A DNA stretch of 24,965 bases. It comes from a virus. Shown here piece by piece: positions 9,491-24,606 of this stretch. The notes below the pieces were generated by a model. That model saw nothing but the letters and a program-made list of their open reading frames with translations, ran no database searches and had not been told where the DNA came from. The stretch's first letter is position 1. Each line of letters begins with the position of its first letter. Made by a program: the position numbers and the translations under genes. The DNA lies in IMG/VR virus record IMGVR_UViG_3300036771_000095, positions 1-24,965 of that record; one strand, 5' to 3'.

Positions 9491-9649
9491 ATGGGTCTAT
9501 TCAAGAGGCGGCAGCCACCTCCGCCGCCGCCACCGGTAATTCGCTACGTCTATCGGGAAGTTTCCATGGTCGACCGCTTGAACGCTTTGGCAGATTCCAT
9601 GGACGAGGCCATCAAGCAGATCCGATCGACCAGAGTGGGTGTTGGATGA
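9491..9649 (+). CDS. FKRRQPP proline-rich small protein, copy 1
   Basis: 52 aa from ATG 9491, directly after the previous stop. MGLFKRRQPP is followed by a seven-Pro run (PPPPPPP), VIRYVYREVS and an amphipathic helix (MVDRLNALADSMDEAIKQI). A related gene on the other side of the PAS gene (10062) starts with the same FKRRQPP motif, also at DNA level. Cytosolic; a membrane-surface or scaffold peptide is possible. Confidence 0.55.
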   Translation: MGLFKRRQPPPPPPPVIRYVYREVSMVDRLNALADSMDEAIKQIRSTRVGVG

Positions 9650-10065
9650 CTGATCTCGTTCTCTCGATGGACACCATGATGCGGGACCTGGCCCGCGTCC
9701 AGTTCATGCTCCGGGGCATTGAGGCCGACGTCTCGATCTTCGCTGACGACAAGGGTCGCATCCTCTACACGTCACCCGGCGCCGAAAAACTGACCGGTTG
9801 GAAGCTCTCCGAAGTCGTCGGTCGCTCCCTCACCCTCCTGATGCCGAACCGCTACCACAAACTTCACCAGCAAGGATTGGAACGGGTGTCGTCCACCGGT
9901 GGCGGCTTCGATAGCTCCAGGGTGCTGTTCCGGACTCTAGAGATGCCGCTGCTGACCAAGGCTGGACGGGAGGTCGGAATCCATCTCTCGGTGGCTGCCT
10001 GGCGTTCCACTGAGGGACGTCTCTACTTCGTTGCTGGAATGGCGCCAGTGGAGACGGAATCGTGA
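9646..10065 (+). CDS. PAS-domain sensor protein
   Basis: 139 aa; starts in the overlap with 9491-9649 and ends in a GTGA overlap. Residues 1-25 form an amphipathic helix (MMRDLARVQFMLRGI). Residues 28-133 match a PAS fold: 'VSIFADDKGRILYTSPGAEK', LTGWKLSEVVGRSLTLLMP, the RYHKLHQQG helix, TLEMPLLTKAGREVGIHLSV and GRLYFVAGMA at the end. PAS domains bind flavin, heme or small ligands, or mediate dimerisation. No kinase, HTH or other output domain is present, so it must act through a partner; neighbours suggest a membrane protein. No signal peptide. Confidence 0.85.
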   Translation: MTDLVLSMDTMMRDLARVQFMLRGIEADVSIFADDKGRILYTSPGAEKLTGWKLSEVVGRSLTLLMPNRYHKLHQQGLERVSSTGGGFDSSRVLFRTLEMPLLTKAGREVGIHLSVAAWRSTEGRLYFVAGMAPVETES

Positions 10066-13158: not shown

Positions 13159-13421
13159 AGGTCTACGAGGTTGCCAAAGGAAGCGGGGTCACGCAGCTGT
13201 ACAAGTGTGGGCACTGCGACGGGAAGATCAAGCCCGGCGAGTGGGTTCTCGACTGGCTGAAACTCGACCGTGAGAGCCTGTTCACGAAGCAGCGGGTGGT
13301 CACTCACATCGAGTGTGTTCGCAAGCTGATCGCTGAAGCAGGAGTTCCCGAGGAGTCGGAACGGGCGTTCCGAAGGCTGCGGGAGAAGATGGTCGTCACT
13401 GGCAAAGTGTTTCCGTCGTGA
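13155..13421 (+). CDS. Small zinc-finger protein (CxxC...HxxC)
   Basis: 88 aa from GTG in a GTGA overlap. C18-x2-C21 (YKCGHCDGKIKPGEWVLDW) and H51-x2-C54 (VVTHIECVRKL) form one zinc site of a treble-clef-like type; 'KPGE.VLDWLKLDRE' is conserved in similar phage proteins. The C-terminal helix is basic. Function unknown; nucleic-acid binding likely. Confidence 0.7.
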   Translation: MKVYEVAKGSGVTQLYKCGHCDGKIKPGEWVLDWLKLDRESLFTKQRVVTHIECVRKLIAEAGVPEESERAFRRLREKMVVTGKVFPS

Positions 13422-13624
13422 CTTCGGCGCAGCAGGAGCTCGTGGATGCAGTGAAGACGTTCTGGGCGGAGAACGGGTTCGCTCCGACGGTGCGGGATCT
13501 ATGTCAGGCAACTGGGCGCACTTCGACTTCCACAATCCATGCGCATCTGCAGCGGCTTCGGCGGGCGGGCGTGGTGGATTGGGCGGAGGGTCGGCAACGG
13601 ACGTTGCGGGTGTGCGGTGACTGA
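13418..13624 (+). CDS. LexA-like winged-helix DNA-binding protein without peptidase
   Basis: 68 aa, GTG start in an overlap. The whole protein matches the LexA N-terminal DNA-binding domain: QQELVDAVKTFWAENGFAPT, then VRDLCQATGRTSTSTIHAHLQ with recognition helix STIHAHLQRLRRAG, then the RTLRV wing. The LexA autoproteolytic domain (Ala-Gly cleavage, Ser/Lys dyad) is absent. It may occupy LexA-type operators, or a phage operator, without SOS-triggered cleavage. Confidence 0.8.
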   Translation: MTSAQQELVDAVKTFWAENGFAPTVRDLCQATGRTSTSTIHAHLQRLRRAGVVDWAEGRQRTLRVCGD

Positions 13625-13844: not shown

Positions 13845-13948
13845 AGCGGCTGATCATCGCTCTTGCTCTGATTTTTCTCCCAGCGTCTCTTCCGCCGCCG
13901 TCTTGCTTGGTGCCAGTTCCCTTCCACTGCGATCCGCCGCCGCGATGA
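13841..13948 (+). CDS. 35 aa exported peptide
   Basis: GTG start in a GTGA overlap; the stop overlaps the glycosyltransferase start. VKRLIIALALIFLPASL is a signal-peptide-like or membrane-anchor segment; the remainder is Pro-rich with two Cys (PSCLVPVPFHCDPPPR). Possibly a tiny secreted or membrane peptide. Low information content. Confidence 0.4.
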   Translation: MKRLIIALALIFLPASLPPPSCLVPVPFHCDPPPR

Positions 13949-14640
13949 TTGACCTGCTCGTTGGGTGCCCCGTGAGTCAACGGGCATGGATCCTCCCTCG
14001 CTGGCACGACCATGTCGCCGTGGCAGCTGACATCGCCGGAGTCGCATTCAGCTATGCCTTCGTGATCGACCCGCTCGACGTCTTCAGTGTCAGCGTCATC
14101 GAAGCGTTCCCCGTCGATTCAATCCTCGACTTCGTACAAGACGGCAGATCACTCGATGAACGGTCATGGAACCACGACAGGTACTTCCACATGGCGTTTC
14201 TCCGTAACCGCCTTCTGCGGACCGTCAGCCTGTTCGACCCGCCGTTCTTCTTGTCGCTCGACTCTGACATCCTTCTGCACCCCGACGCGATCAAAAACAT
14301 GCTCGAAACAACAAGTACGTACGACGTGGTTGGTGGGAAGACCTTCATGACACCCGGCGGCACAGCCTGTCCAAGCTGGGGGTTCCACACTTACAACGAC
14401 GGGTTGAGACGCAGCGATGCCGACGGCGTGTTCCCTGTCGAAGTCGTGATGGCGGTGAAACTGCTGACCCCGAAAGCGTACGAGATTCCCTACGAGTTCC
14501 ACAGCCACGGCGAAGATCTTGGGTTCTCGATCAACTGCCGAAAGGCAGGGCTGTCGCTGGGAGTGGACGCCCGCGTGACCAACAAGCACGTGATGCGCCA
14601 AGAGGATTTGGAGAAGATCGATGAACGCTGCGGCTTCTAA
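13945..14640 (+). CDS. GT-A fold glycosyltransferase
   Basis: 231 aa. FFLSLDSDILLHPDAI carries the DxD motif (D106, D108) that binds the metal and nucleotide-sugar, and FHSHGEDLGFSINC (E190, D191) is the usual acceptor/catalytic acidic motif near the end of GT-A domains. The N-terminus (MIDLLVGCPVSQRAWILPRW) differs from the common GT2 start, so it is closer to the short GT-A phage enzymes with an ED-x-FS motif. No membrane segment. It probably transfers a sugar to a virion or host-surface acceptor; substrate unknown. Overlaps the next glycosyltransferase. Confidence 0.8.
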   Translation: MIDLLVGCPVSQRAWILPRWHDHVAVAADIAGVAFSYAFVIDPLDVFSVSVIEAFPVDSILDFVQDGRSLDERSWNHDRYFHMAFLRNRLLRTVSLFDPPFFLSLDSDILLHPDAIKNMLETTSTYDVVGGKTFMTPGGTACPSWGFHTYNDGLRRSDADGVFPVEVVMAVKLLTPKAYEIPYEFHSHGEDLGFSINCRKAGLSLGVDARVTNKHVMRQEDLEKIDERCGF

Positions 14641-15430
14641 GTACAAGCCTGGGCTCGATCTCGTGATCGTGAACTACCAGACGGCAATGGACCTCCGCGA
14701 CTGCCTCGCGTCGCTCGTTGAGGTCGCTCCGACCGTGGACTACGACCTTACGCTCGTCAACGTCTCGCCACTCCCAGCCGACAAGCTGGTCCTGAAGGAC
14801 TGGGAACGCAAAGCGAAGATCACGACCTACCTGGAGTACTCCAAGAACGTTGGTTACGCCAGGGCCGTCAACGCCGGGTTGCGCGACGGGCAGCGAGAAG
14901 TGTGCGTGGCGCTCAACGCTGACATCTTGTTCCTGCCTGACGCGTTGGAGCTCTGCCACCAGGCCCTGATGGCGCATGACGACTGGGGGGTGCTGGGGCC
15001 ACGACAGATTGACGATCGGGGCCGGTTCACTCACGCCGGGATCTTCGGAACGAACACTAGACCGCGGCATCGCGGCTGGCATGAAGCGAACCAGGGTCAG
15101 CATCAGGACGTGCAGGATGCGGTGACGGTCGCCGGATCGGCCTACTTCGTGAAACGGTCATTGTGGGAAGAGCTCACGGCGTGTCCGGTCTACCAGGACT
15201 TCTGTGGATCCGAGGGGGCCTTTCTCCCGACGAACCACTACTACGAGGAGACGTGGTGCAGTTACCACGCCGCCAGCCACGGGGCGCGGGTCATGTACTA
15301 CGGGGAGGCCACGCTGGTGCATCGCTGGCACCGGGCCTCTCCGGTGGGCGGAGCGGCGGATCAGCAGATGTCGGCGTCCAGAACCCTATTCAGGGCAGCG
15401 TGTGACGCTCACGGCATCCCCAGGGACTAG
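14621..15430 (+). CDS. Rhamnosyltransferase-like family 2 glycosyltransferase
   Basis: 269 aa. VIVNYQT (15-21) is the GT2 first strand, NVGYARAVNAGL (76-87) the conserved nucleotide-region motif, and LNADILF (98-104) the DxD-equivalent. GSAYFVKRSLWEE and YYEETWCSYHA match the acceptor region of rhamnosyl-type GT2 enzymes (the latter in place of 'edvDlclR'). ATG 14621 follows a GGAG site and overlaps the first glycosyltransferase by 20 bp. The last four bases CTAG hold the stop codons of this gene and the convergent methyltransferase. Donor sugar not provable from sequence. Confidence 0.85.
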   Translation: MNAAASKYKPGLDLVIVNYQTAMDLRDCLASLVEVAPTVDYDLTLVNVSPLPADKLVLKDWERKAKITTYLEYSKNVGYARAVNAGLRDGQREVCVALNADILFLPDALELCHQALMAHDDWGVLGPRQIDDRGRFTHAGIFGTNTRPRHRGWHEANQGQHQDVQDAVTVAGSAYFVKRSLWEELTACPVYQDFCGSEGAFLPTNHYYEETWCSYHAASHGARVMYYGEATLVHRWHRASPVGGAADQQMSASRTLFRAACDAHGIPRD

Positions 15431-16071
15431 CGAGCCACCACGAACACGCCGTCGTGGTTGGAGAAGAGCCAATAGCGACGAAGATCAGCGACGAGGCCGG
15501 GTCGGTTATGCAAACCGGCTTCCTTCAGTCGTTCCGTCCACCACAGACGAGACTTGATCGTGACGTGGGTCGGGTCACTGTCCCACCCCGGCTGGTTCTC
15601 GGTGCAGATCGTCAGGACAGCGTGACCGCCTGGCATGAGAGAGTTACGGATGCACGCCAGGGCAGTGGCGATGCGGTCTGTGGCGATGTGCTCCAACGTC
15701 TCGAAGCAGACCACTATGCTGAATGCCTCCCGGCCGTAGAAGGTGTCGTCGCCAGAAGTGAGGTCATACCATTGCAGTTGGTCTCTCACGTCGTCCGGGG
15801 CGTGAGCTAAGGCAAAATGGCTGGCGTCGACCCCGAATGTTTCGACACCGCGGCGTTGCATGTGGCGGACGAAGAAGCCGAAGGCGCAGCCGATGTCGAG
15901 GCATCGATGTGACGACGACCGGTCCTGATTGGCGCTGCGGTCCGGAACGAGTGTTTCCCAAACGGCGTGGCTGAGATCCTGCCACATCAAGGAATCCTGA
16001 TATCCGGCGCCGCCGTCGAGCGTGTCCCAGTATTCCTGGCCGTACGTCAGGTCGTCAGTCCGGAACTCCAT
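15427..16071 (-). CDS. Class I SAM-dependent methyltransferase
   Basis: 214 aa from ATG 16071, which overlaps the CmcI-like stop. CLDIGCAFGFFVRHM (58-71) is the SAM-binding glycine motif, GVDAS follows as the acidic end of strand 2, then FETLEHI (123-129) and SLMPGGHAVLTICTEN, the motif of O-methyltransferases acting on sugars or small molecules. The C-terminus (TVKS/WWTERLKEAG region) is family-like. Last gene of a three-gene minus operon. Acts probably on a glycan with the other two enzymes. Confidence 0.85.
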   Translation of the reverse strand: MEFRTDDLTYGQEYWDTLDGGAGYQDSLMWQDLSHAVWETLVPDRSANQDRSSSHRCLDIGCAFGFFVRHMQRRGVETFGVDASHFALAHAPDDVRDQLQWYDLTSGDDTFYGREAFSIVVCFETLEHIATDRIATALACIRNSLMPGGHAVLTICTENQPGWDSDPTHVTIKSRLWWTERLKEAGLHNRPGLVADLRRYWLFSNHDGVFVVAR

Positions 16072-16700
16072 CACGTGTGCTTCCGGAGGAACCCGCCGGG
16101 GTTGAACGTCATGAAGAACTTTTCGCATCCGAGGTCGATCTCGTACTCGGGATGCCTCGTCAGGAACTCCTCGATGGCTTCTCCGGGGCCGGGGCCGTGC
16201 TCGATGGCGATCGGATGCCCGTTGACGTTGGAGTCCTCCACGATCAGGTAGCTGTCTGCTGTGACAAGCGGAGCGTAGAGTTCGAGCTCTTGCGCGACGT
16301 GGGCTTGGCGATGGTCCGAATCCAAGATCACCATGACCGTGCCAGCTGCTTGAGAACGAAGCCGGTCTACGATCCCGGGATCGGTGGAGCTCCCATGGAT
16401 GTACTCGATCCGCGGATGGACGGGACGGTCAGGGAAGAATGGTGTCCCGGCGACATCGATGGTGACGACACGACCAGACCCGAGTAGATCGAACAGGCAG
16501 GCGAAGTAGTGGGCGCTACCCCCGAAGGCTGTCCCGGTTTCGATGAGCAGATCGGGGCGGATCTGATGGATGAGCTCTTGGTAGACCCACAGATCGAGCG
16601 GGCATTTCAGGATTTTCGTTCCGAGCCAGTAGGTCTGCTCCCAGGTCTGCTGGAAGCTGTTGTAGTAGAGCCGGTGGAAGTCATCGACGGTCGGGTTCAT
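16071..16700 (-). CDS. CmcI-like (cephalosporin hydroxylase/rhamnosyl O-methyltransferase family) methyltransferase
   Basis: 209 aa, full length for the family. DLWVYQELIHQIRPDLLIET leads into GTAFGGSAHYFACLFD (SAM pocket), HPRIEYIHGSS, VMVILDSDHRQAHVAQELEL (D127, D129, H130 as metal-site residues), YLIVEDSNVNGHP (E155, D156) and GPGPGEAIEEFL, the hallmark series of CmcI/rhamnosyl O-methyltransferases. Members methylate sugar hydroxyls, for instance in mycobacterial glycopeptidolipids. Overlaps both operon neighbours by 1-4 bp. Confidence 0.9.
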   Translation of the reverse strand: MNPTVDDFHRLYYNSFQQTWEQTYWLGTKILKCPLDLWVYQELIHQIRPDLLIETGTAFGGSAHYFACLFDLLGSGRVVTIDVAGTPFFPDRPVHPRIEYIHGSSTDPGIVDRLRSQAAGTVMVILDSDHRQAHVAQELELYAPLVTADSYLIVEDSNVNGHPIAIEHGPGPGEAIEEFLTRHPEYEIDLGCEKFFMTFNPGGFLRKHT

Positions 16701-17191
16701 CGTTCCCCTTCTACGCGCAGGTAGCCAACTTCCCAGCCGCGACCGATGTTCACGATTCGTAGTCCGAGGTTCTCGAAGTCTTCGGTCAGCATTCGTGGGG
16801 TCAACCCGACCATGTGAAAGTCGTACTTGTTGGCTTGACCTCCGAAGATGATCTGTTGGATGGCCCGGTCCATCTCCAACGTGTCGATTTCAAGCACTTG
16901 GCGGCAGGCAGCGAGGAAGTCCGGGGTTTCCACGATCAGTTTCCCGCCGGGACCGACAAGCCGTGCCCATTCTCGCAGGTAGAGCCTGTAGTCAGCCCAG
17001 GGGACGTGCTCGATCATCTCCTGGCTGTAGACCACTGCGGCACAGCCGTTGGGGAGGTTGATGTGGCGGGCGTCGCAGACGAGATCGACGGGGTGGTGGT
17101 GGCCTTCCTCGTCGGTGAGTGGGGTGGAGTCGGCGTCGATGTGGGTCCAGTCGGGACCGAGCCATCTGCGGGTTCCGATCACGAGCTTCAT
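16697..17191 (-). CDS. Methyltransferase-like protein with degenerate motif I
   Basis: 164 aa. MKLVIGTRRWLGPDWTHIDA occupies the place of the usual 'l.lGcG....gwi.vD' motif of methyltransferase type 11 proteins, but the GxG is replaced by GTR. VDLVCDARHINLP, VVYSQEMIEHVPWADYRLYL (EH at 61-62) and LVGPGGKLIVETPDF are intact. It may still bind SAM or serve as a non-catalytic subunit. First gene of the minus operon; no clear promoter or Shine-Dalgarno found. Divergent from the + gene at 17246. Confidence 0.75.
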   Translation of the reverse strand: MKLVIGTRRWLGPDWTHIDADSTPLTDEEGHHHPVDLVCDARHINLPNGCAAVVYSQEMIEHVPWADYRLYLREWARLVGPGGKLIVETPDFLAACRQVLEIDTLEMDRAIQQIIFGGQANKYDFHMVGLTPRMLTEDFENLGLRIVNIGRGWEVGYLRVEGER

Positions 17192-17233
17192 ACGGTCTAG
17201 TCGACACGGAGAGTGGTTGGTCGTAGAGGCGGG

Positions 17234-17239
17234 TACACG
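17234..17239 (+). promoter_or_regulatory. -10 TACACG for leaderless membrane peptide
   Basis: TACACG ends 7 nt before the A of ATG 17246. No matching -35. It fits the TACANT-like pattern at 604, 7215(-) and 12782. The remaining intergenic sequence 17192-17245 shows no other feature. Confidence 0.35.
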
Positions 17240-17245
17240 TCGCCC

Positions 17246-17347
17246 ATGATCGCTGACCAGATTGTGATCGGTGGAGATGTCGTCTCCATCCTCATCGTGA
17301 TCCTCCTCATCCTCTTGATCATTGCCTTGGCGAAACGGATCTTCTAG
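17246..17347 (+). CDS. 33 aa single-pass membrane peptide
   Basis: MIADQIVIGG, then one very hydrophobic helix (VVSILIVILLILLIIALA) and KRIF. Its TAG overlaps the GTG of the next gene by one base. Predicted leaderless start. Function unknown; tiny membrane proteins next to glycosyltransferases can act as anchors or flippase partners, but nothing here proves it. Confidence 0.5.
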   Translation: MIADQIVIGGDVVSILIVILLILLIIALAKRIF

Positions 17348-17568
17348 TGGCGTTCTCGATTCCGGACCCAGACGCGGATCTGTTGGTGAAGTTCCACTTC
17401 GTCATGATGTGCGTCTGGGTCCTACTTCTGATTCCTACGCTGATCTGGTGGAAGCAGTCGATCCTCTGGGTCGCGGCGATGAGTCTGTACGCGAATTTCG
17501 TGGGGCATTTCAGCGCGTGGGACGCGGCGATGGCGGCGCGGGCTGCGAGCACCAAAGGAGAGCCATGA
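17347..17568 (+). CDS. Two-helix membrane protein
   Basis: 73 aa from GTG 17347. DPDADLLVKFHF then helices at about 17-35 (FVMMCVWVLLLIPTLIWW) and 38-55 (SILWVAAMSLYANFVGHF), ending in FSAWDAAMAARAAS. Small proteins of this pattern occur in actinophages near structural genes. Function unknown. Confidence 0.65.
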   Translation: MAFSIPDPDADLLVKFHFVMMCVWVLLLIPTLIWWKQSILWVAAMSLYANFVGHFSAWDAAMAARAASTKGEP

Positions 17569-17600
17569 GTTGAGGCGAACGTCTGGTCGATGCCGTGACC

Positions 17601-18338
17601 ATGCGATTGTTCGCCCTCATGGTCACGAAGAACGAAGCCGACCGGTATCTCGGTCTGGCGCTCTCAGCGTTACGCCCCGTGGTGGACGAAGTCTTCGTCT
17701 TCGATGACATCTCCTCCGACACGACCGTTTCGATCGCGGAGGAGCATGGGTGCGTATGCACCAGTCGACATCCGACCGGACCGTCGTTTCTCGAACACGA
17801 AGGTCGGTTCCGGCAGATGGCGTGGGACGTGTTCGAAGCTGCGCTCGAACCCGAGATCGGCGACTGGATCCTCGCCATCGACGCCGACGAGATCGTCACG
17901 GCCATTGGGAATCCTCGCGAGCTCCTCCTGGAAGCAGCTGAAGCTTCAAACGGCCGTGGGGAGCTCGCCCGTCAGATCCCGATCCCGGAGGTGTTCGATG
18001 TCCGCGACGGTGTTCCGTTCGTGCGGCTCGATGGGTACTGGGGGAAGATCGTCGGGACCCGCTTCTTTGCTTACCAGCCGAACGGGAAGTTCTCCGAGAG
18101 GGCGATGGCGTCAGGCAGCGAGCCGCTCTACATCCGTCCCTACATCGGTCCAATCGTTGAAGGGTTCTGGCTTTTGCATCTCGGCTATGCGAGGAAAGCT
18201 GATCAGATCGCCAAGTCGCAGCGGTATACCGAACGGGTCGGTCATAGCGACGCTCACGTCGCGTCGATACTGAAGGAACCGCGGTTGGCGAAGTGGACCG
18301 GTCCATCAATTCCGAGATTGCATGACTACTTCTCGTAG
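17601..18338 (+). CDS. Glycosyltransferase family 2 protein
   Basis: 245 aa from ATG 17601; GTG 17595 is in frame. MRLFALMVTKNEADRYLGLA is the standard 'KNEa' GT2 start, FVFDDISSDTTVSIAEEHGC the nucleotide-binding strand and turn, WILAIDADEIVT (D94, D96) the DxD metal site, and EGFWLLHLGYA the C-terminal aromatic motif. It belongs to the short GT2 type that uses 'DaDE'. Probably the third sugar-transfer step of this block. The packaging promoter begins within its last codons. Confidence 0.88.
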   Translation: MRLFALMVTKNEADRYLGLALSALRPVVDEVFVFDDISSDTTVSIAEEHGCVCTSRHPTGPSFLEHEGRFRQMAWDVFEAALEPEIGDWILAIDADEIVTAIGNPRELLLEAAEASNGRGELARQIPIPEVFDVRDGVPFVRLDGYWGKIVGTRFFAYQPNGKFSERAMASGSEPLYIRPYIGPIVEGFWLLHLGYARKADQIAKSQRYTERVGHSDAHVASILKEPRLAKWTGPSIPRLHDYFS

Positions 18339-18356: not shown

Positions 18357-18383
18357 TTGCCATTCCAAAACGTGGAATGGCAA
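18357..18383 (+). repeat. Perfect 11-bp inverted repeat at the start of the packaging transcript
   Basis: TTGCCATTCCA (18357-18367), loop AAACG, TGGAATGGCAA (18373-18383). No T-tract follows. It coincides with the predicted +1 and contains the ATG at 18377, leaving the GGAGGG plus GTG 18398 start free. Either a 5' RNA stem-loop or a dimer-binding operator. Confidence 0.7.
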
Positions 18384-18397
18384 ATTTCGGAGGGCGT

Positions 18398-19021
18398 GTG
18401 GCGGACACCGAGACGCAAGATCTGAATGTCAGGCTGCCATCTGGAGCGACATTCGTTGTGCTGATCCCGCCAGAGAAGCAGTACATCGAGGAACGCGTCG
18501 CTCGCTATCTCGCTGACAACCATTTCGTCAACGTCTCCGACTACCAAGATCTCGACAGGTTGGTCAGCTTCGAGCTCTTCGTGTACCGCTGGAGCCTGTT
18601 CCTCTCCCGCGGATCGGACTACTACGGCGACGAGATCGACAACCGTGCGCTCGCCAGCCAAATCGAGTCGTACAGCACTGAAGTTCGCCTACTGAAGAGG
18701 GCTTTGGGGGTCGACAAGCCCGCTCGGGACAAAGCCCGAGGCGACGACTCGGTGGTCAACTACCTTACGAAACTCCGTGAGCGCGCCCGCGAGTTCGGCG
18801 TTATGCGCAACAAGCAGTTCGACAAGGCGTTGGAGCTCTTCCAGCAGCTGCACGCACTCGTCGGCTACTACGACCGTTGCGACGAAGTAGAACGACGCGA
18901 GAACCACGCCACTCTGGAGGACATCTTCGGTTGGATCAGAGATGTCGCCCTCCCCGAGTTCGATGAGATCGACCGCTCGTTCCGTCAGAACCAGCAGAAG
19001 CAGTGGGTAAGGGGGCAGTAG
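18398..19021 (+). CDS. Candidate terminase-associated / small terminase protein
   Basis: 207 aa from GTG 18398, chosen because GGAGGG (18389-18394) precedes it; ATG 18377 lies inside the stem-loop. Mostly helical: ELFVYRWSLFLSRGSDYYGD, SYSTEVRLLKRALGVDKPAR, YLTKLRERAREFGVMRNKQF and a C-terminal IFGWIRDVALPEFDEID. I recall similar proteins beside large terminases in phages but cannot name a family. Position two genes before the large terminase suggests a DNA-packaging accessory. Confidence 0.6.
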   Translation: MADTETQDLNVRLPSGATFVVLIPPEKQYIEERVARYLADNHFVNVSDYQDLDRLVSFELFVYRWSLFLSRGSDYYGDEIDNRALASQIESYSTEVRLLKRALGVDKPARDKARGDDSVVNYLTKLRERAREFGVMRNKQFDKALELFQQLHALVGYYDRCDEVERRENHATLEDIFGWIRDVALPEFDEIDRSFRQNQQKQWVRGQ

Positions 19022-19606
19022 ATGGCGCTTGCTGAGGTTCCCACCCGAGTCGAGTCTTTCCTCACTGCTGTTGACGAAGCCTCCCGACGGAAAGGGCGAC
19101 GACTCTCGTGGAATGAACGAGTCGAGATCATCTACGACTTCTTCCCCCGCAGCAAGGACCCAGACTGGAACCTGATCCTCCAAGACCTCGATTCGTTCGG
19201 CGAGATCGTCAGAGACATCCTGCGGCTCGAACAAGCCACCCCCGGAAAGTCCGGGCCACGTCCTTCTCCTGATCTACGGGAAGGGATGAAATCGATCCGG
19301 AAACTGAACGGAGAAGACCACACCATTCTCCGATTCAATGAAGCCTTCAAGGTATTGGCCCAAGGGGTCTCGCTGACTGCTCTGGCGAGGAAGACGCATC
19401 TGTCCCGCACTCAGCTGCACCGGCTGATGCACGGCGAGTGCGACCCGTCCCCTCATGAGCTCAGCCAGGTCGCCAAAGCCTTCGGGAAGGAACCGTCCTA
19501 CTTCCTGGAGTTCCGCAGCGCGTTCATCCTCGCGGCCCTCGGTGCTCGGCTGGAACTGGCCCCCGAAGCGACCATTGGGCTGTTCAGGAAGGTCACGAAG
19601 GCATAG
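19022..19606 (+). CDS. HTH protein, probable small terminase subunit
   Basis: 194 aa, starts directly after the previous TAG. The N-terminal half is helical; residues 115-162 form a Cro/C1-like helix-turn-helix (VSLTALARKTHLSRTQLHRL, then MHGECDPSPHELSQVAKAFG). Its TAG overlaps the GTG of the large terminase, so the two are probably translationally coupled. Small terminase subunits recognise pac/cos sites through an HTH. Alternative: an independent regulator. Confidence 0.65.
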   Translation: MALAEVPTRVESFLTAVDEASRRKGRRLSWNERVEIIYDFFPRSKDPDWNLILQDLDSFGEIVRDILRLEQATPGKSGPRPSPDLREGMKSIRKLNGEDHTILRFNEAFKVLAQGVSLTALARKTHLSRTQLHRLMHGECDPSPHELSQVAKAFGKEPSYFLEFRSAFILAALGARLELAPEATIGLFRKVTKA

Positions 19607-23512: not shown

Positions 23513-23665
23513 ATGGAACGTCCCGAACCGTTGAAGGGATCGAAGAACTGGTTTGGTCGCCGTCGCCGTGAAACGGCCGTGCAGATCATCGATGATGCCG
23601 AGATCGAAAAACTCCTCGCCGAAGCCGAGAAAGAGAAGGAGGGTGACGACAAGGAGTCCAAGTGA
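23513..23665 (+). CDS. 50 aa basic/acidic helical protein
   Basis: GAGGAGG before the ATG. MERPEPLKGSKNWFGRRRRE (basic) then a charged helix (DDAEIEKLLAEAEKEKEG) and an acidic end. Soluble; 4-bp overlap with the protease start. It could be a small scaffold- or portal-associated peptide; no family known. Confidence 0.6.
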   Translation: MERPEPLKGSKNWFGRRRRETAVQIIDDAEIEKLLAEAEKEKEGDDKESK

Positions 23666-24606
23666 TCTTCGAAGGCGAGCATTGCATTGTGCTGAGCGCA
23701 ACGCTGCGCGTGCTTCCGGACGACGTGGAATGCGCTTGGGCGGAGCGCCATCTGCGAACAGATCACGATATTGGCTGGATCCTCGGCAATTTCGTTGAGG
23801 CGAACCGAGCGAATGACAATGGGCACATCTTCCCGTTGGATCACCTGAAGGACAGCTACGCCACCGTTCTTTACAAGCCGCTGAACCTGCTCCATCAGGG
23901 TCGGTACATCGTCGGCTCCTACGTCGGGGCGGAGCTCATCGAGCCTCCCGAGGACGCCGCCGAGGAAGACAAGTACCCAATCGTTGAAGCCTTGGCGGGT
24001 TTCTGGCGCAGCCAGTTTCCTGAGGAGTACGAACTCATCAAGCGGGCGCACTCCGAAGGTGCAGCCTTCTACTCGATGGAGTGCGTTCCCGAGGAGATCG
24101 GCTGCACCGCTGAAGGGTGCGGGCAGATCGCCAAGTACGTAGGTCGTCACTCGGACACGTACTGCCAGCACATGTCGGCGGCTGGTGGGCAGAAGCGGCT
24201 GTTGAAGCCGCATTTCTCGGCGGGGGCGCTGATCATCCCTCCGGCACGGCCGGGTTGGAAGCAGGCCGACATCCGCAGCCTGGCCCGGAAGGACGAGCGG
24301 GAGCTCTTCGAGTCGGTGTACGCCAAAGTGGAGGAAGAGACTCCGCATCTGGGGCCGAAGGAGTGGTCCTTCTTCATGGAGCAGATCGTGTTGGAAGGCC
24401 GCGATTTCTCCACTGATCAGCGGAACAAGATGGCGAAGAGCGGCGAGGCGATGTCGCATGGCGGGTTCCCGATCAAGAACGCCCAGGATCTTAAGAATGC
24501 GATTCAGGCGATCGGTCGGGCGAAGAACCCGGCGGCGGCAAAGGCGCACATCAAGAAGCGCGCCGCGGCTCTGGGTTTGACGAAGCTGCTTCCTGAGGGT
24601 TGGTGA
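23662..24606 (+). CDS. Prohead maturation protease with DUF6582-like C-terminal domain
   Basis: 314 aa, GTG start. Residues 50-145 match phage prohead proteases: NDNGHIFPLDHLKDSYATVL, YKPLNLLH (H78), YIVGSYVGAELIEP and GAAFYSME (S138); H78 and S138 are the probable catalytic pair. A Cys-rich insertion follows (C141, C148, C153 and C168) that may bind a metal. Residues 255-314 carry the 'FPIKNAQDLKNAIQAIGRAK ... HIKKRAAALGL' module seen fused to or beside actinophage proteases (DUF6582). Processes capsid or scaffold after assembly. Follows the portal, as usual. Confidence 0.82.
   Translation: MIFEGEHCIVLSATLRVLPDDVECAWAERHLRTDHDIGWILGNFVEANRANDNGHIFPLDHLKDSYATVLYKPLNLLHQGRYIVGSYVGAELIEPPEDAAEEDKYPIVEALAGFWRSQFPEEYELIKRAHSEGAAFYSMECVPEEIGCTAEGCGQIAKYVGRHSDTYCQHMSAAGGQKRLLKPHFSAGALIIPPARPGWKQADIRSLARKDERELFESVYAKVEEETPHLGPKEWSFFMEQIVLEGRDFSTDQRNKMAKSGEAMSHGGFPIKNAQDLKNAIQAIGRAKNPAAAKAHIKKRAAALGLTKLLPEGW

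What the first reader, a model, noticed from the sequence alone, without database searches (positions are those of the whole stretch)
13945..18338. Phage glycan-modification block: three glycosyltransferases plus three methyltransferases
Two GT-A/GT2 enzymes on + are followed by a minus operon of a methyltransferase-like protein, a CmcI/rhamnosyl O-methyltransferase-like enzyme and a class I methyltransferase, then a third GT2. The set could build and O-methylate a short oligosaccharide, as mycobacteria do on glycopeptidolipids. It sits next to the packaging genes, so a virion protein is a plausible acceptor. Enzyme families are recognisable from motifs; acceptor, donor and methylation site are not.
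Basis: partly seen in the sequence, partly recalled or inferred. Interest (0 to 1): 0.72.

Follow-up and report, generated by a model that had tools for sequence, protein, structure and literature searches.

The report
Phage sugar-coating enzyme gene block
An uncultured tailed phage carries three sugar-attaching and three methyl-adding enzymes beside its head and packaging genes; the three sugar enzymes form a conserved set found in hundreds of uncultured phages, and most likely build a methylated sugar decoration on the virus particle.

Summary
The block is real and at the stated coordinates. It holds GT1, GT2 and GT3 (GT-A fold glycosyltransferases) and a minus-strand, overlapping operon of MT3, a CmcI/rhamnosyl-O-methyltransferase-family enzyme and MT1 (class I methyltransferases). 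All lie upstream of the HTH-TerL-portal-protease cassette. Relatives show that it is not a random cluster. GT2 and GT3 are linked on one strand in 74 of the best 80 phage contigs with GT2, and GT1-GT2-GT3(-MT1) travels as a unit. In an unrelated large aquatic phage lineage, GT1 follows the portal gene in 67 of 67 testable loci, ahead of the prohead protease. Corndog-like mycobacteriophages, whose capsids are reported to be glycosylated, keep their O-methyltransferase and GTs in that same interval. The most likely role is virion glycosylation with O-methyl capping. The enzyme families differ from the proven mycobacteriophage set, so this is a new variant of a known kind. Acceptor, donor sugar and methylation site are unproven. 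Rhamnose specificity is not supported: the protein lies far below the NCBIfam equivalog cut-off. A capsid C-terminal tail is not a general marker in this lineage. MT3 lacks the usual SAM motif I, but a 50%-identical relative shares this, so it is not decay.

The parts
13945..14640 (+). GT1: GT-A glycosyltransferase, 231 aa; DxD (D106, D108) and GED (189-191) invariant in nine phage sequences
   Evidence: structure model pLDDT 74, GT-A fold, Z about 14 to COLGALT1, mannosylglycerate synthase, Mnn9
14621..15430 (+). GT2: GT2-type glycosyltransferase, 269 aa; NxD (N99, D101) and HxWH (234-237) invariant; overlaps the GT1 end by 20 bases, as in L077
   Evidence: PF00535; alignment A3; 346 viral contigs with a relative
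15427..16071 (-). MT1: class I SAM methyltransferase, 214 aa, intact motif I (DxGCAxG); start corrected from 16128
   Evidence: PF13489; alignment A5; start from stop/start overlap and homologue N-termini
16071..16700 (-). CmcI/rhamnosyl-O-methyltransferase family enzyme, 209 aa; D127, H130, E155, D156 conserved in phage relatives
   Evidence: PF04989 200 bits; relation to CmcI 2bm8/2br3; 24 viral relatives; alignment
16697..17191 (-). MT3: short methyltransferase-like protein, 164 aa; GTR in place of the GxG of motif I, same residues in L138
   Evidence: PF08241; 50% identity to L138:13165-13749
17246..17347 (+). small membrane peptide, 33 aa
   Evidence: sequence, hydropathy peak 3.25
17347..17568 (+). 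small hydrophobic, probably membrane, protein, 73 aa
   Evidence: sequence only; its hydropathy was not correctly tested, as one search used a wrong frame
17595..18338 (+). GT3: GT2-type glycosyltransferase, 247 aa from GTG or 245 aa from ATG 17601; DADE motif invariant in six sequences
   Evidence: PF13704; alignment A6
18377..19021 (+). conserved protein in the position of a small terminase subunit (not proven)
   Evidence: found upstream of TerL in most relatives; no family match
19022..19606 (+). HTH protein
   Evidence: PF01381
19606..21297 (+). terminase large subunit
   Evidence: phrog_5909 E 1e-6; 52% to annotated TerL of MK557849
21701..23503 (+). portal protein
   Evidence: homologue position and GX15bay annotation
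23662..24606 (+). conserved head protein, probable prohead protease (by position)

Best explanation
The block encodes a cytoplasmic glycan pathway. GT1 puts the first sugar (or an early one) on a virion head or tail protein, GT2 and GT3 extend it with host nucleotide sugars, and MT1, CmcI and probably MT3 O-methylate the glycan. The likely benefit is shielding or altered adsorption of the particle. Shown: enzyme families, conserved catalytic motifs, a GT1-GT2-GT3 core shared by many phages with MT1 added in some, and the tie of GT1 to head genes in two lineages. Inferred: a virion acceptor, the order of the enzymes, that the methyltransferases act on the glycan, and the benefit.
For: Catalytic motifs are invariant in GT1, GT2, GT3 and MT1. 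GT1 has a GT-A fold; best matches include protein glycosyltransferases such as COLGALT1 and the PBCV-1 capsid glycosylation enzyme. GT3 lies on the same strand within 5.5 kb of GT2 in 74 of 80 viral loci, and five of the six exceptions end at the contig edge; among 46 cellular GT2 relatives only 3 have GT3 nearby. Complete GT1-GT2-GT3-MT1 sets occur in two further relatives (L084, L085), and L138 and L248 add more. Query by portal gene, so not biased to GT1: 67 of 67 large aquatic phages have GT1 right after the portal gene, and GT1-selected loci show the order portal-GT1-protease-MCP. Cultured relatives KLEB27-3 and MTATph1 have the same head module without a GT. At least six such contigs also hold GT2. 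Firecracker (Corndogvirus) keeps O-methyltransferase, gp34 and two GTs between portal and capsid protease, and papers report glycosylated Che8 and Corndog capsids and OMT plus three GTs in cluster O (PMC12363180; PMC11600133). The six enzymes show no transmembrane segment, and no thymidylate synthase of the ThyA family, which known hydroxymethylase routes need, was found in 18 records.
Against: No acceptor is shown; the window ends before its capsid gene. A Ser/Thr-rich capsid C-terminal extension occurs in L026/G001 and a short one in G046, but not in the other GT-carrying relatives with a readable end; Che8 and Firecracker capsids carry no long tail either, so this test is weak. In the second lineage GT2-GT3 lie among replication genes (ThyX, RNR, DnaB). 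In the window's own lineage the set is accessory: 7 of 38 TerL loci have a member upstream.
Confidence: 0.6

Rival explanations
1. The enzymes modify the host surface (cell-wall glycan or glycolipid) during infection or lysogeny to block superinfection, as serotype-converting phages do.
For: GT and O-methyltransferase sets are typical of actinobacterial surface glycolipids (established knowledge); the CmcI family includes rhamnosyl O-methyltransferases; the methyltransferase operon is on the strand opposite to the structural genes.
Against: No polyprenyl-phosphate GT, flippase or membrane GT was seen among the block's genes, and the six enzymes show no transmembrane segment. The fixed place of GT1 inside a head operon points to late, virion-linked expression. 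No integrase was identified in the window, so lysogeny is unproven.
Confidence: 0.2
2. The glycosyltransferases glycosylate phage DNA bases to escape restriction.
For: Phage GTs that hypermodify DNA are known (literature cited in PMC12619734); in the second lineage GT2-GT3 lie near ThyX, RNR and DnaB.
Against: No ThyA-family enzyme in 18 records, among them the complete GX15bay genome; ThyX is present in the second lineage but is not known as a hydroxymethylase (general knowledge). GT1 is locked into the head operon. O-methyltransferases and, in L138, a sulfotransferase and RmlD suit a glycan rather than a base.
Confidence: 0.08
3. The genes are loosely associated morons, each with its own target, clustered because this site tolerates insertions.
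For: The window lineage shows variable content and position; CmcI is found in none of the other 44 records tested.
Against: GT2-GT3 linkage in 74 of 80 loci, repeated GT1-GT2-GT3 runs and GT2-MT1-GT3-GT1 order.
Confidence: 0.12

Closest known systems
Virion glycosylation sets of mycobacteriophages (Corndogvirus Firecracker gp33-gp36; Che8 gp108-gp110; Courthouse gp15-gp17, gp21)
   Same: Several GT genes in a row with an O-methyltransferase; in Firecracker they lie between portal and capsid protease, as GT1 does in the second lineage here; capsid and tail tube reported glycosylated (PMC12363180, PMC11600133)
   Different: No significant sequence relation of GT1, GT2 or MT1 to those enzymes; only GT3 weakly matches Courthouse gp21 (E 1e-7); their methyltransferase is TylF-like, not CmcI (E 0.19 for the comparison)
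Caudovirales GX15bay (MK557849), mangrove soil
   Same: Same TerL lineage; GT2 and GT3 homologues (50% and 36%) in a run of six GTs and one methyltransferase directly upstream of TerL
   Different: No GT1 or CmcI match found; its methyltransferase is not MT1; function never tested
CmcI / rhamnosyl O-methyltransferase family (PF04989)
   Same: Full-length family match, 200 bits; conserved acidic residues
   Different: Far below the cut-off of the rhamnosyl O-methyltransferase equivalog NF045824; substrate unknown

Membership tests
Mycobacteriophage-type virion glycosylation system | Several phage glycosyltransferase genes adjacent to an O-methyltransferase | tested here: met
Mycobacteriophage-type virion glycosylation system | Enzymes homologous to the proven set (Che8 gp108-110, Corndogvirus gp33-36) | tested here: not met
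   profile searches found no significant match except GT3 with Courthouse gp21; fold-level relation not excluded
Mycobacteriophage-type virion glycosylation system | GT gene inside the head operon between portal and capsid protease | tested here: inconclusive
   met for GT1 in the second lineage but in the window the block is upstream of TerL
Mycobacteriophage-type virion glycosylation system | Glycan on capsid or tail-tube C-terminus | not testable with these tools
   no virion; C-terminal extension survey mixed
GT-A / GT2-type glycosyltransferases | Pfam match over cut-off (or GT-A fold) and DxD-like motif | tested here: met
   GT2 and GT3 by Pfam, GT1 by fold and motif
CmcI/RMNT family PF04989 | curated cut-off 23.2 bits | tested here: met
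   200.3 bits
Rhamnosyl O-methyltransferase (NF045824 equivalog) | curated cut-off 400 bits | tested here: not met
   176.6 bits
Class I SAM methyltransferase | motif I (GxGxG-like) in MT1 | tested here: met
   DIGCAFG in the window; D, G, C, A, G invariant in four sequences
Class I SAM methyltransferase | motif I (GxGxG-like) in MT3 | tested here: not met
   GTR instead; same in L138; single-sequence fold failed, pLDDT 40

The most novel reading that the evidence does not exclude
GT1-GT2-GT3 is a widespread, previously unrecognised virion glycosylation pathway of uncultured phages, present in two unrelated tailed-phage lineages and hundreds of contigs, with GT1 a fixed head-operon gene in one of them, and with add-on methyltransferases (and in L138 a sulfotransferase and RmlD) that diversify the particle's glycan. 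It would have arisen independently of the mycobacteriophage enzyme set.
Probability: 0.45. Interest if true: 0.75.

Novelty: new variant of a known kind. Interest (0 to 1): 0.55.

Why it matters
Protein glycosylation of phage particles has experimental support in only a few phages, mycobacteriophages above all. If this set does the same job, sugar-coated phage heads are common in lakes and soils, and the GT1 position between portal and prohead protease gives a simple genomic marker to predict them and choose candidates to test.

Tried and rejected
Searches with GT1 and MT3 alone in viral contigs found nothing; profiles were needed. The TerL profile found no bacterial genome, so the host is not identified. 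GT2 in bacterial genomes gave mostly weak relatives. CmcI had no match in the phage collection. The capsid C-terminal-tail test gave no consistent signal. DNA modification was tested through the ThyA family and lost weight. No sigma-70 promoter-like site was found in the region. The MT3 fold without an alignment failed. The entry for the 73-aa ORF used a wrong frame and is not relied on. Freeman 2023 could not be read and is cited only through papers that describe it. Moraphages (PMC12619734) were considered as the second lineage but not shown to be the same.

Full report
What is there. The window is a whole 24,965-base virus record, a fragment with no host named. The six genes of the finding are real: all show codon-position GC like the other phage genes and five of six pass Pfam cut-offs. 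GT1 and GT2 overlap by 20 bases on the + strand. MT3, CmcI and MT1 overlap end to start on the - strand, which suggests one operon. MT1 starts at 16071, not 16128, judged by the stop-start overlap and by homologue N-termini. Two small hydrophobic ORFs lie before GT3. The block is followed by a conserved protein, an HTH protein, TerL, portal and a probable protease.

Enzymes. GT2 and GT3 match GT2-type Pfam families. GT1 does not reach its cut-off, but a model from nine sequences (pLDDT 74) has a GT-A fold, Z about 14 to COLGALT1, WrtF, mannosylglycerate synthase and Mnn9. Catalytic motifs are invariant: DxD and GED in GT1, NxD and HxWH in GT2, DADE in GT3, DxGCAxG in MT1. The CmcI-family enzyme has 200 bits to PF04989 but 176.6 against a cut-off of 400 for the rhamnosyl O-methyltransferase equivalog, so its sugar is open. 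MT3 has GTR where motif I has GxG; its 50%-identical relative in L138 has the same residues, so the change is shared rather than a sign of decay, but activity is uncertain.

Relatives. TerL found 55 related loci. In 38 with at least 3.5 kb upstream, 7 hold a member of GT1, GT2, GT3 or MT1 there. Others carry the set elsewhere: after the capsid gene in G017 and G019, with order GT2-MT1-GT3-GT1, and on the opposite strand in G007. The complete genome GX15bay from mangrove soil has GT2, GT3, four further GTs and a methyltransferase directly upstream of TerL. L138 has GT1-GT2-GT3, an RmlD-methyltransferase fusion, another GT, a sulfotransferase, MT3, MT1 and then TerL. So the core is GT1-GT2-GT3, MT1 is frequent in the closest sets, and MT3 and CmcI are additions. 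CmcI was found in none of the other 44 records.

Spread. A GT2 profile found 346 viral contigs; in the best 80, GT3 lies on the same strand within 5.5 kb in 74, and five of the six exceptions are cut by the contig end. Of 46 cellular loci with a GT2 relative, 3 have GT3. A GT1 profile found 375 viral contigs. Of the best 80, 57 lie in a different lineage of large AT-rich aquatic phages, where GT1 sits between portal and prohead protease. To avoid choosing loci by GT1, I searched with the portal instead: 67 of 67 loci with enough sequence have GT1 right after it. Many of these contigs are close relatives, so 67 is not a count of independent events. Cultured phages with a related capsid (KLEB27-3, MTATph1) have the same head module without GT1. 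At least six contigs of this lineage also hold GT2, there near ThyX, RNR and DnaB.

Mechanism. The proven precedent is virion glycosylation in mycobacteriophages: Che8, Corndog and Myrna (PMC12363180), with O-methyltransferase plus three GTs in cluster O (PMC11600133). In Firecracker these genes lie between portal and capsid protease, the same interval as GT1 in the second lineage. The enzymes are not homologous by profile, apart from a weak GT3-Courthouse gp21 match. An unrelated GT set in the same interval of the head operon supports a virion acceptor by analogy. The capsid C-terminus gave no clear answer: L026 has a 20-residue Gly/Ser/Thr tail and G046 a short one; other GT-carrying relatives have none, but the Che8 and Firecracker capsids have no long tail either. 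Lack of ThyA in 18 records speaks against the known route to glycosylated DNA bases; lack of membrane segments in the six enzymes speaks against a classical surface-conversion cassette.

Verdict. The most likely function is virion glycosylation with O-methylation, by a set of enzymes different from the proven one. Acceptor, donor and methylation site remain to be shown by experiment.

Noticed in passing
L034:1657-4398; L077:8288-12163: Terminase genes of relatives hold in-frame insertions that look like inteins (one in L034, two in L077), with Cys at the start and HN at the end of the L034 insert.
   Followed up: no
window 9646-10065; L037:7524-7982: A PAS-domain protein (PF00989) is encoded in the window; a PAS-like protein lies directly before GT1 in L037, L038 and L040.
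   Followed up: partly
L090:7044-8813: In Nocardioides nematodiphilus a protein-kinase-like N-terminal part is fused to a GT2-family domain 44% identical to the phage GT2, near ssb-like and rpsF-like genes.
   Followed up: partly
L138:9612-15103: A phage cassette with an RmlD-methyltransferase fusion, a sulfotransferase (PF13469) and a second protein that resembles one by eye, between GT3 and TerL.
   Followed up: partly
window 13418-13624: A LexA DNA-binding-domain protein (PF01726) without a protease part; relatives occur upstream of TerL in many related phages.
   Followed up: no
L171:10797-11675: A protein that looks like a DNA cytosine methyltransferase lies between GT2 and GT3 in this large phage.
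   Followed up: no
L026:1335-2183: A von Willebrand factor A domain protein (PF00092) lies between GT3 and MT1.
   Followed up: no
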